From the NCBI GenBank assembly GCA_021800795.1, contig JAJYYO010000001.1, positions 1 through 64,000 on the forward strand: 64,000 nucleotides of DNA. The letters are read 5' to 3'. The notes under the pieces were generated by a model. That model had not been told where the DNA came from. It made no database searches and saw only the letters and a list, made by a program, of their open reading frames with translations. A program made the translations under genes and the position numbers. Below, piece after piece: positions 10,496-18,150 of the stretch. This DNA comes from Pseudomonadota bacterium. GTDB taxonomy: Bacteria; Pseudomonadota; Gammaproteobacteria; Burkholderiales; Gallionellaceae. Numbering within the stretch: the first letter of the stretch is position 1; every line of letters begins with the position of its first letter.

Positions 10496-11620
10496 ATGGG
10501 CCTGCGACAATATAAAATCGCCGATTTTTCGAAGGCATCGCTGTTCAAGGGAAGAATTCGCGGCGGGATAGCGCTCATCATGGTTGCTCTGATCCTTTAT
10601 GTCGGGGAGGAATTTATTCGTCAGCCCGTGCATTACCAGGTATGGGGGTATTACCCTGAGTGGCTGAAGGATGAATGGCAGAAAGTTGATCTGGGACTTT
10701 TTGATCAGATTCTTTTCTTTGATGTCCCGGTCAGTGCGGATGGACGGATGTTGCAAGTCAGCGATTGGCCGAAAAAATGGCAAAACCTGATTGTCGCTGC
10801 GAAAGGCACCCGCCTGCAACCTGTGTTTACATTGTTCGACGGCAAAGAGTTCGAGCGAATCTTTTCGGACGCAAATCAGCGAAAACTGCTCCAGACCGGG
10901 ATGCTTGCCTTGACAGACCCGGCAGACGGCTTGCAGCTCGATTTTGAGGTTTTCGGCGCCGTGTCGGGGGTGAGTTCGGATGGATACCGGCTTTTTCTGA
11001 AATCGATGAAGCGCGAGCTTGCCGCCAAGGGGAAAAAGCTGAGTCTCTTTGTTTTGACGGAAGACAGTGCGGGTCTGTATGACAGTGCAGCGCTTCAGAA
11101 CGCCGACTATATTGTCATTCAGGGCTATGACGCGCATTGGAAGGGAAGTCCGAATGCGGGCTCGGTCGCCGAGCTGCATGGTGCTTCCGTAGACAGTTGG
11201 GATTCGTCGCTGAAGCACTATTTGTCGCTGGGTGTGCCGCGCAATAAAATCCTCATGTCGGTTCCCTATTTCGGCTATGAATGGTCGACAATCAGCGATA
11301 TGCCGGGGGCGCCGACTCGTGGGGCGGGTCGCGAAATCAGTTTCGCGCCGTTGCCTGCCGGTCTGGTTCCCGAAGTGGCGGCGTCGGCGATGGCGCGCAT
11401 CGGGCAATACGGCGTTAAGCGTGATCCGGCAACAGGATCGCCCTATTACATCTTCAAGAATAAAACAGGCTGGGTGCAGGGCTGGTTCGAAGACGAGGCG
11501 AGCCTGTCGGCCAAATTTGAATTCGTCAGGAAAGAACGGCTCGCCGGCGTCGCGGTGTTCCCATTGGGTTACGACGGAGAAAATTTCCAGAATCTGCTGC
11601 GCCGTTATTTTCGTCAGTAA
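10496..11620 (+). CDS. GH18-like glycoside hydrolase with N-terminal membrane anchor
   Basis: One TM helix; YQVWGYYPEW..., LQLDFEVFG, KILMSVPYFGYEW, AGVAVFPLGYDGENF, chitinase-like TIM-barrel pattern. Confidence 0.65.
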   Translation: MGLRQYKIADFSKASLFKGRIRGGIALIMVALILYVGEEFIRQPVHYQVWGYYPEWLKDEWQKVDLGLFDQILFFDVPVSADGRMLQVSDWPKKWQNLIVAAKGTRLQPVFTLFDGKEFERIFSDANQRKLLQTGMLALTDPADGLQLDFEVFGAVSGVSSDGYRLFLKSMKRELAAKGKKLSLFVLTEDSAGLYDSAALQNADYIVIQGYDAHWKGSPNAGSVAELHGASVDSWDSSLKHYLSLGVPRNKILMSVPYFGYEWSTISDMPGAPTRGAGREISFAPLPAGLVPEVAASAMARIGQYGVKRDPATGSPYYIFKNKTGWVQGWFEDEASLSAKFEFVRKERLAGVAVFPLGYDGENFQNLLRRYFRQ

Positions 11621-16392: not shown

Positions 16393-18150
16393 TCATGTTT
16401 TCAAGGTTAACGAGGGAGGCGCGGATGCGAGTCGGCTCATCAACCTGGCGATCTCGTTGGGTTCCTTCCTGGTCTCCGGCGCAATTTCGCAGGCCGGCGG
16501 TTGTATCACCCGGGTTGCTGTATCCGCAGGAGGGATGCTTGGCTGAGCTATGGCGTCAAGTATCGGATCGCTGCCGGGTGGCTCCGGGATTGGTGCGGCC
16601 GCTGTAGCGGCTGCGATGGCCTCGCTGAAATCGGGCGCCAGTGCGATATTCCCGGATTGCACCAGGGATTGCAAGGTTTCACGGATGGTTTCTTTTTTTG
16701 TGATAACTCGGATCGCGAGAAACAGCGACTGCTGCAAGCCATTGGTGATGCGCGAAAGTGCGGTACCGACATTTTCCTCGGCGCAGGCATGCATGAAAAT
16801 ATAACAATGTGTTTCATTGGAGGATAGCAGGTCGCCATTTCGCACAATGTGTATCTGGTTAAGCACTTCAGGAGGGGAGGTGTGCTCGTGATAACTGGCA
16901 ACAATGAGCGCCAGGGGAATATCCAGCACATCGCCTCTTTCAAACATATCCAGCGACTCGCTGCAAAAGGTCACCAGGTCGACATAGCCTTTGTGGTCGC
17001 TGGAAAGAATGCTGGAGTAGGCCAGATCGAAGTTTTGCTTGATCTTGCGGGCATAAGTCTGTCCTGCGAGCATCTCCCACAAGAGAGGCAGTTGCTGCTT
17101 GGCAACCTGTTGATGAATGATGAGATTGGCGCCGAAACGCAGCAGCAGCAACTCATTGAGATAACGCAGGGAAAAACCGGATTCCCTGATAACAATTCTC
17201 AGTCTGTTGCCCCGGTTCAGTCGCAGGTAATGCACGATCTTGGCGATCTGCTTCAGCTCGGTCGTGTTGTCCAGCGAGATGACCACGGTTGCCCGGGCGG
17301 CGTCACGGCTTAAGTGCACCAGATCGATAAAGCTTTGTGCCTGCTTCCATTCGCCGGTGTGATGGATGGCCGAGGAGAATGCCTCAAAGTCAGGGCCAAA
17401 ATAGAAAACGGCGTTGTGATCGTCGGCGTTGCTCTCGGTCTGGTAGGCTTCGATGCTCGCCTCGGGCAAGGAATGATCTATCCTGATGAGGCCGCTGGTA
17501 TCGAGAGAAACCGGGAATGCTTTTGCGGCAATTGCGCCTTCCTGTGAATACCAGAAATCGATCAGCAGTTCGAGACCCACTTTGCTTTGATTAATCCGCG
17601 CGACGCCGTTGAAACAGCTTAAAATCGACTGAGATCTTTTTTCACCCTTGAAGGGAAAAAGGAAGAGCGAAGTATTGCCGGTTGATTTCATCCAGTCACG
17701 GTAATCCATTGCCTGCGTTTGGGCCATGTGCTGATCGCTCATGGTAAACAAGTCGCCTGCGTCATCAAACAGGAAAAAACTCCCCAGCGGAACACGGAAA
17801 TAGTCGAATTCCTGCAAAAATCGCCTGATGCCGTGGCGAAATATATTGGTCGTGTAATCGCCTTCCTGAGCAAACAGATAGAGTCGGCTTTGTGTGATGT
17901 CATCGTTGAAATCGACCCCCGAGGCTTTTGCCCTGGACAGGAAAACGCCGGGGGTCATCTTGGTGACCAGCACGCAGGTGTTGCCGCCGGCGAGGTTGGC
18001 CTTGAGCGCCTGAATGATGATGCTCAGATGTGCCGGAACACTGTCTACGATGGCGGCGTAAATCGAACCCTTCAACAAAACGTTAATGGACGGCGGAACG
18101 CCCGGAATGCCCAGGTATTTCAAGGTTAGCATCAGCGAGTTGTTGTTCAT
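16393..18150 (-). CDS. BcsE-like c-di-GMP-binding family protein
   Basis: LRLNRGNRLRIVIRESGFSLRYLNELLLLRFGANLIIHQQ resembles the GIL domain of BcsE; overall RecA-like/REC-like layout and length consistent. Confidence 0.75.
   Translation of the reverse strand: MNNNSLMLTLKYLGIPGVPPSINVLLKGSIYAAIVDSVPAHLSIIIQALKANLAGGNTCVLVTKMTPGVFLSRAKASGVDFNDDITQSRLYLFAQEGDYTTNIFRHGIRRFLQEFDYFRVPLGSFFLFDDAGDLFTMSDQHMAQTQAMDYRDWMKSTGNTSLFLFPFKGEKRSQSILSCFNGVARINQSKVGLELLIDFWYSQEGAIAAKAFPVSLDTSGLIRIDHSLPEASIEAYQTESNADDHNAVFYFGPDFEAFSSAIHHTGEWKQAQSFIDLVHLSRDAARATVVISLDNTTELKQIAKIVHYLRLNRGNRLRIVIRESGFSLRYLNELLLLRFGANLIIHQQVAKQQLPLLWEMLAGQTYARKIKQNFDLAYSSILSSDHKGYVDLVTFCSESLDMFERGDVLDIPLALIVASYHEHTSPPEVLNQIHIVRNGDLLSSNETHCYIFMHACAEENVGTALSRITNGLQQSLFLAIRVITKKETIRETLQSLVQSGNIALAPDFSEAIAAATAAAPIPEPPGSDPILDAIAQPSIPPADTATRVIQPPACEIAPETRKEPNEIARLMSRLASAPPSLTLKT

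What the first reader, a model, noticed from the sequence alone, without database searches (positions are those of the whole stretch)
10496..18150. Compact Pga-like polysaccharide locus headed by a BcsE-like protein
Seen: a tightly spaced minus-strand run (BcsE-like 16393-18150; TPR/barrel 15120-16391; GT2 13768-15123; 73-aa TM protein 13547-13768; CE4 deacetylase 11614-13569), with a convergent GH18-like protein at 10496-11620. Established: in E. coli PNAG secretion, PgaA is TPR/porin, PgaB is a CE4 deacetylase plus glycoside hydrolase, PgaC is a GT2 and PgaD is a small membrane protein; BcsE is a c-di-GMP receptor of cellulose secretion systems. Inference: a Pga-like machine with the PgaB activities split over two genes, and with c-di-GMP input supplied by a BcsE homologue instead of (or as well as) a PgaCD-type site. 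I know of no described system of this composition, but I could not search for one.
Basis: partly seen in the sequence, partly recalled or inferred. Interest (0 to 1): 0.85.

Follow-up and report, generated by a model that had tools for sequence, protein, structure and literature searches.

The report
BcsE-led amino-sugar polymer secretion operon
An iron-oxidiser-type bacterium (Gallionella group) carries a five-gene operon that probably makes, de-acetylates and exports a second slime polymer, led by a sensor protein (BcsE) so far known only from cellulose machines; every genome found with this arrangement also makes cellulose, so the operon may let one signal drive two polymers together.

Summary
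On the minus strand, 18150-11614, five coupled genes encode BcsE, a TPR/outer-membrane protein, a GT2 synthase, a 73-aa single-TM protein and a CE4 deacetylase; a GH18 protein converges on them. The BcsE is a true PF10995 member (E 4e-63) with the RxGD I-site, and its model matches full-length E. coli BcsE. The operon is conserved in Gallionella, Comamonadaceae, Undibacterium and Silanimonas (12 genomes), and its BcsE forms a clade apart from cellulose-linked BcsE (support 100/99). It is Pga-like in plan but not a Pga system: no PgaB, PgaD or PgaC equivalog, and the GH18 is on another transcript. New facts: all 12 genomes also encode cellulose synthase and have only this one BcsE, whereas 4 of 13 genomes with relatives lacking it have any BcsB match. 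In three myxobacterial-type relatives the same slot holds a KaiC-REC-degenerate-GGDEF protein, a likely cousin of BcsE. Best reading: a c-di-GMP-responsive amino-sugar polymer system that works beside cellulose. Whether BcsE acts on the GT2, on cellulose synthase or on both is not settled. New variant of a known kind.

The parts
16393..18150 (-). BcsE homologue, 585 aa: degenerate RecA/KaiC-like NTPase domain + REC-like + degenerate GGDEF with I-site R437-N-G-D440; first gene of the operon
   Evidence: PF10995 4.2e-63; PDB BcsE 6e-14 with the I-site aligned; model best matched by full-length E. coli BcsE 9fnn/9fo7, then KaiC; RxGD in 19/19 BcsE compared
15120..16391 (-). TPR + predicted outer-membrane beta-barrel exporter, 423 aa, Ala-rich N-terminus
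   Evidence: TPR families; PgaA TPR models 26 bits; the orthologue in L078 matches PgaA_barrel weakly, 4.7e-5
13768..15123 (-). GT2 processive synthase, 451 aa, GTG start; DDGS133, DGD186, AEDCD276, QRYRW314; TM-like segments on both sides of the GT domain
   Evidence: PF00535 9e-34; PgaC_IcaA best NCBIfam model but below cut-off; motifs and TM-like segments
13547..13768 (-). 73-aa single-TM protein with cytosolic-type tail motif PIFLK (residues 53-57); found after the GT2 in all 23 loci examined
   Evidence: alignment; TM; no family match
11614..13569 (-). Membrane-anchored CE4 deacetylase, 651 aa: TM, GH42M/GATase-like domain, NodB domain (EMDTE340, HGDVH392, RPPY432, LSVH523), C-terminal beta-sandwich
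   Evidence: PF01522; model pLDDT 86.8; Foldseek CE4 and GH42 matches; motifs
10496..11620 (+). GH18 protein, 374 aa, N-terminal TM anchor, DGLQLDFE144 motif; convergent with the operon, 7-nt overlap with the CE4 gene; associated rather than operonic
   Evidence: PF00704 7.6e-25; GH18 near the cluster also in L072, L088 and the Rhodoferax locus L148
56002..59724 (+). BcsC of the genome's separate cellulose locus, 1240 aa with barrel domain; the rest of that locus (BcsD, R, Q, A, B, Z) is on the same contig just beyond the window
   Evidence: barrel HMM 6e-88; bcs genes at C28:67.4-75.1 kb, no BcsE among them; BcsE is single-copy in the genome
60824..61603 (-). AlgX-like O-acetylation domain beside the cellulose locus (acetylated-cellulose type)
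   Evidence: PF16822 2e-73

Best explanation
The operon encodes a synthase-dependent exopolysaccharide machine: the GT2 polymerises and translocates an N-acetylhexosamine-type polymer with help from the small TM protein, the membrane-anchored CE4 enzyme partly de-N-acetylates it in the periplasm, and the TPR/barrel protein exports it. BcsE is its c-di-GMP-responsive regulator: it binds c-di-GMP at the RxGD I-site and is probably brought to the membrane by the small TM protein, as BcsF brings BcsE in E. coli. The system works beside a cellulose synthase, and BcsE may draw the BcsQ/BcsR partners to the GT2, so both polymers respond to the same signal. Shown: the genes, families, conserved order, I-site, separate BcsE clade and co-occurrence with bcs. 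Inferred: the polymer, c-di-GMP binding, the BcsE-TM protein contact and coupling to cellulose.
For: Gene families. Five-gene order kept in Gallionella (G000, G127, G028), Comamonadaceae, Undibacterium pigrum, beta MAGs and Silanimonas. GT2-linked BcsE is one clade, 100/99, apart from cellulose-linked BcsE; I-site in 19/19. In Gallionella, BcsE is present in the three genomes with the GT2 cluster and absent from eight with a similar strong BcsB but no cluster. Relatives without BcsE hold other REC-bearing regulators in the same slot: KaiC-REC-GGDEF-like in L077-L079, Hpt-REC-REC in Hellea. All 12 BcsE+ genomes have BcsB and a single BcsE; BcsE-less relatives have any BcsB in 4/13 (Fisher 4.6e-4). 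A BcsQ gene faces the CE4 gene within 0.4 kb in L070, L073, L075, L076, and lies behind the GH18 in L072.
Against: No binding, expression or polymer data exist. Strict co-occurrence with bcs and one BcsE per genome also fit a BcsE that serves cellulose synthase in trans. Most loci are MAGs and the genomes are related, so the Fisher tests overstate independence. L066/L068 have a closely related cluster without BcsE immediately upstream (short contigs). The TM tail motif occurs there too, so it is not tied strictly to BcsE.
Confidence: 0.55

Rival explanations
1. BcsE encoded here acts on the cellulose synthase in trans, binding BcsR/BcsQ as in E. coli; its place in the GT2 operon only ties the expression of the two systems together.
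For: 12/12 genomes with this BcsE have BcsB and no second BcsE; the window genome's bcs operon has BcsQ and BcsR-like genes but no BcsE; BcsQ genes sit next to the cluster in several genomes.
Against: Eight Gallionella genomes with a similar strong BcsB lack any BcsE, so that cellulose type does not need it; BcsE of this clade was not found without the GT2; the slot is filled by a BcsE-like KaiC-REC protein in L078 and L079, whose genomes gave no BcsB match.
Confidence: 0.22
2. An ordinary, divergent PNAG (Pga/Hms) system in which BcsE is only a passenger or a transcription-level regulator.
For: PgaC_IcaA is the best named model for the GT2 (217.7 bits); weak PgaA TPR and barrel matches; CE4 present.
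Against: All Pga equivalog cut-offs missed; no PgaD or PgaB match; CE4 of a different architecture; neighbouring hydrolases are GH18, or GH8 in Campylobacterales.
Confidence: 0.13
3. The cluster decorates cellulose or makes a mixed chain (GT2 adds amino sugar to, or alternates with, the glucan) instead of making a separate polymer.
For: Strict co-occurrence and frequent adjacency with bcs and AlgX/AlgF/MBOAT acetylation genes.
Against: It has its own outer-membrane exporter and an own GT2 with TM segments; relatives exist in genomes with no BcsB match.
Confidence: 0.07

Closest known systems
E. coli type II Bcs system: BcsE, BcsF, BcsR, BcsQ (PMC7439463, PMC11470070)
   Same: BcsE family, three-domain architecture, RxGD I-site, neighbouring single-TM small protein with a cytosolic tail
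   Different: No BcsA/B, BcsG or BcsF-family match in the operon; the synthase next to it is a PgaC-like GT2 with a CE4 deacetylase
PgaABCD / HmsHFRS (PNAG)
   Same: TPR/barrel exporter, GT2, small membrane protein, CE4 deacetylase
   Different: Equivalog cut-offs not reached; CE4 fused to a GH42M/GATase-like domain, not to the PgaB hydrolase; no PgaD; BcsE leads the operon
Sfz/Sfb and Xag-like stalk clusters of iron oxidisers (PMC8250860, PMC4643136)
   Same: GT2-based polysaccharide cluster with suggested c-di-GMP input in related iron oxidisers
   Different: Sfz1 is BcsB-like and Sfz2 has an EpsE N-domain fused to GT2; the present cluster has neither
Wss-type acetylated cellulose (bcs genes plus AlgX/AlgF/MBOAT)
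   Same: Found next to or near this cluster in several genomes
   Different: A separate system; no BcsE in it

Membership tests
BcsE (CBP_BcsE) | PF10995 above the gathering score | tested here: met
   214.2 against 25 bits
BcsE (CBP_BcsE) | NCBIfam TIGR03369 equivalog cut-off | tested here: not met
   172.8 against 244.65 bits: a homologue, not called the cellulose equivalog
BcsE (CBP_BcsE) | RxxD I-site in a degenerate GGDEF domain | tested here: met
   R437-N-G-D440, aligned with E. coli RTGD
BcsE (CBP_BcsE) | NTPase-like / REC / GGDEF fold of full-length BcsE | tested here: met
   Foldseek E 1.9e-29 to 9fnn over 504 columns; C-terminal part TMt 0.78 to 6ybb
BcsE (CBP_BcsE) | binds c-di-GMP and BcsQ | not testable with these tools
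   biochemistry needed
Type II Bcs cellulose system | BcsE encoded with BcsF/BcsG in the cellulose locus | tested here: not met
   bcs operon at C28:67-75 kb has no BcsE; BcsE sits with GT2/CE4
PNAG Pga system | PgaC equivalog | tested here: not met
   TIGR03937 217.7 against 422.3 bits
PNAG Pga system | PgaA equivalog | tested here: not met
   TIGR03939 26 against 366.65 bits, TPR part only
PNAG Pga system | PgaB: CE4 fused to its own glycoside hydrolase domain | tested here: not met
   only PF01522 in the CE4 protein, at E up to 1; different architecture in the model
PNAG Pga system | PgaD | tested here: not met
   no Pfam or NCBIfam match of the 73-aa protein
Sfz/Sfb stalk cluster | BcsB-like Sfz1 plus EpsE-N/GT2 fusion Sfz2 | tested here: not met
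   no such domains in the cluster against the published description
BcsF | single-TM protein that docks BcsE | tested here: inconclusive
   similar topology and a short tail motif; no BcsF family match; docking not testable

The most novel reading that the evidence does not exclude
BcsE is not originally a cellulose protein but one branch of a KaiC-REC-GGDEF family that regulates GT2/CE4 polymer operons; in these bacteria a single BcsE, docked by a BcsF-like small protein, serves as a shared c-di-GMP hub that couples secretion of cellulose with a second, partly de-acetylated amino-sugar polymer, perhaps beta-1,4-linked (chitosan-like), as the GH18 and GH8 neighbours would suggest.
Probability: 0.2. 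Interest if true: 0.85.

Novelty: new variant of a known kind. Interest (0 to 1): 0.62.

Why it matters
BcsE has been described as a regulator of cellulose secretion (PMC7439463, PMC11470070). A conserved operon that places it with a GT2/CE4 machine, in genomes that also make cellulose, suggests one c-di-GMP receptor could set the ratio of two matrix polymers. The KaiC-REC-GGDEF-like proteins in the same slot also give a concrete lead on where BcsE came from, differing from the published idea that it arose by fusion of smaller subunits. Undibacterium pigrum DSM 19792, a cultured isolate, carries both systems and makes the question testable.

Tried and rejected
A genome-contig scan with the single BcsE sequence found nothing; the GT2 profile worked. 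Sfz/Xag stalk cluster considered and rejected on domain content. PDB sequence search with the CE4 protein found nothing; Foldseek gave only general CE4 and GH42-type matches, no PgaB or PelA among the first 50. My thought that the TM tail motif marks only BcsE-bearing loci failed: L066/L068 have the motif without BcsE next to the cluster. Silanimonas L069 looked BcsE-less in the first map because a greedy ORF choice hid the gene; an HMM found it. My suspicion that the cellulose locus lacks an outer-membrane barrel was wrong: BcsC is at 56002-59724. A first BcsE tree dropped the window row through a script error and was rebuilt. The direct sequence link between BcsE and KaiC-REC proteins is modest (HMM E 2e-4 and 3e-5 for the window and L064 at Z = 5000, weak for the rest), so common origin is argued from colinearity, fold and motif together.

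Full report
Setting. The window is contig C28:1-64000 of a 3.2-Mb genome. Its nearest named relative with the cluster is Gallionella sp. STB_51 (G028; the same 234,514-base contig as L072), counted in the same genus.

The observation. Reading down the minus strand from 18150, five genes follow with a 1-nt gap or 1-23-nt overlaps: BcsE, TPR/OMP, GT2 (GTG start), a 73-aa TM protein and CE4. GH18 and CE4 converge with a 7-nt overlap, and GH18 starts 1 nt after a cardiolipin-synthase ClsB-like gene on the plus strand. Pfam and NCBIfam confirm each family except the small TM protein.

BcsE is real. It scores 214 bits to PF10995, it is the only BcsE in the genome, it aligns with the solved E. coli BcsE including the I-site, and its predicted structure (pLDDT 76.9) has full-length E. 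coli BcsE as best PDB match, followed by KaiC. Whole-chain TM-scores are only 0.37-0.45, which I attribute to domain arrangement; the C-terminal pair alone reaches 0.78. It falls below the NCBIfam equivalog cut-off for cellulose BcsE, in keeping with a separate branch.

The other parts. The GT2 keeps the DDGS, DGD, AEDCD and QRYRW motifs and hydrophobic segments on both sides of the GT domain. PgaC/IcaA is its best named model, but at half the cut-off. The CE4 protein keeps HGDVH, RPPY and LSVH, with EMDTE in place of the usual first motif. Its model (pLDDT 86.8) adds a GH42M/GATase-like domain before and a beta-sandwich after the NodB domain. The small TM protein follows the GT2 in all 23 loci examined, with a conserved TM helix and a short tail motif (PIFLKRY-like in most beta/gamma loci). 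E. coli BcsF has the same topology, and its tail adds a strand to the BcsE NTPase-like domain (PMC11470070); that this protein does the same is inference.

Conservation. A GT2-profile scan found the same order in Comamonadaceae (Rhodoferax, Polaromonas and others), Undibacterium pigrum, Gallionella and beta-proteobacterial MAGs, plus Silanimonas after an HMM search. One locus, L088, has GH18 and no CE4 detected behind its GT2. The cluster is rare: besides the window, 1 of 399 genomes of the order sample (G028) and none of 398 of the phylum sample reached the strict GT2 threshold. GT2-linked BcsE proteins form one clade against cellulose-linked ones (100/99; 11 and 8 sequences), and all 19 keep RxGD. 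With three distant KaiC-REC proteins as outgroup, and the window sequence missing by mistake, support fell to 83/95.

Tie to cellulose. The window genome has a bcs locus on the same contig: BcsC at 56002-59724, an AlgX-like gene at 60.8 kb, and BcsZ, B, A, Q, R-like and D at 67-75 kb, with no BcsE. In L072, L073, L075 and L076 the cluster sits beside BcsQ-BcsC-BcsZ, with BcsB also seen in the last three; in the Rhodoferax locus L148 it lies within about 30 kb of BcsB and BcsA. Each of the 12 genomes with the BcsE-led cluster has BcsB and one BcsE. Of 13 genomes with relatives of the operon lacking BcsE, 4 have any BcsB match, 2 of them strong; Fisher p = 4.6e-4 treating genomes as independent, which they are not. 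In the genus, eight genomes with a similar strong BcsB (709-766 bits) have neither BcsE nor the GT2 cluster, so BcsE follows the GT2 and not this cellulose type. I read these together as a GT2 system that needs or favours a cellulose partner.

The regulator slot. In three Myxococcota-type relatives (L077-L079) the gene before the exporter encodes KaiC-like ATPase + REC + a C-terminal region with RxxD (RLED, RKED, RDTD) where BcsE has its I-site. Profile-profile comparison with the BcsE alignment is colinear over 460 columns (probability 92.8%, E 3.9e-7). HMM hits to individual BcsE sequences are weak. L078 keeps a Walker-A-like GASGTGRS and an intact-looking receiver, whereas BcsE is degenerate. 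In Hellea the slot holds Hpt-REC-REC; in the Campylobacterales loci examined the gene before the exporter is TPR or unassigned, and GH8 follows CE4 in three of them. I therefore see a modular slot in which BcsE is one occupant. Published work predicted a RecA/KaiC-like NTD for BcsE and suggested an origin by fusion of smaller proteins (PMC7439463); an ancestral three-domain protein is an alternative that these loci raise, not one they prove.

What it makes. CE4 points to an N-acetylated sugar. GH18 and GH8 families act mainly on beta-1,4 linkages (general knowledge), which hints at a chitosan-like chain, while the GT2 model hints at PNAG. The linkage is unresolved.

Literature. The searches run found no paper describing BcsE with a GT2/CE4 operon; the library holds only open-licence papers, so this is not proof of absence.

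Limits. No structure of a complex was predicted; only 12 loci carry the full pattern, mostly from MAGs; the scan kept only the best 80 loci; ORFs were called mechanically.

Noticed in passing
window 18562-18834: A 273-bp element with perfect 29-bp terminal inverted repeats lies between the divergent bcsE and ABC-transporter genes; about 11 full-length copies at 91% identity or more are in the genome: a MITE-like family.
   Followed up: partly
L072:4024-6201, L073:3880-6159, L075:4327-6339 (minus strand): A second CE4-like protein (CE4b) beside the cluster lacks the HxxxH metal motif in the aligned position and may be a catalytically dead deacetylase paralogue.
   Followed up: partly
L072:1-4105; L067:1-3684; L069:13162-19427; L148:1721-7581: AlgX/AlgF/MBOAT O-acetylation genes flank the BcsE-GT2 cluster in several genomes.
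   Followed up: partly
L082:10983-12242, L084:6973-8172, L087:9489-10808: In Campylobacterales relatives a GH8 enzyme follows the CE4 gene directly.
   Followed up: yes
L119:6462-7634, L122:6445-7623: In Hellea the position before the exporter holds an Hpt-REC-REC protein.
   Followed up: partly
window 7406-7854: Four tRNA genes in tandem on the plus strand, followed by a transposase-like ORF fragment at 8122-8346 (read by eye).
   Followed up: no
L146:9685-14217 (Undibacterium pigrum): A single 1510-aa ORF matches BcsA, and the BcsB match of this genome lies in an open frame of the same length: an apparent BcsA-BcsB fusion.
   Followed up: no
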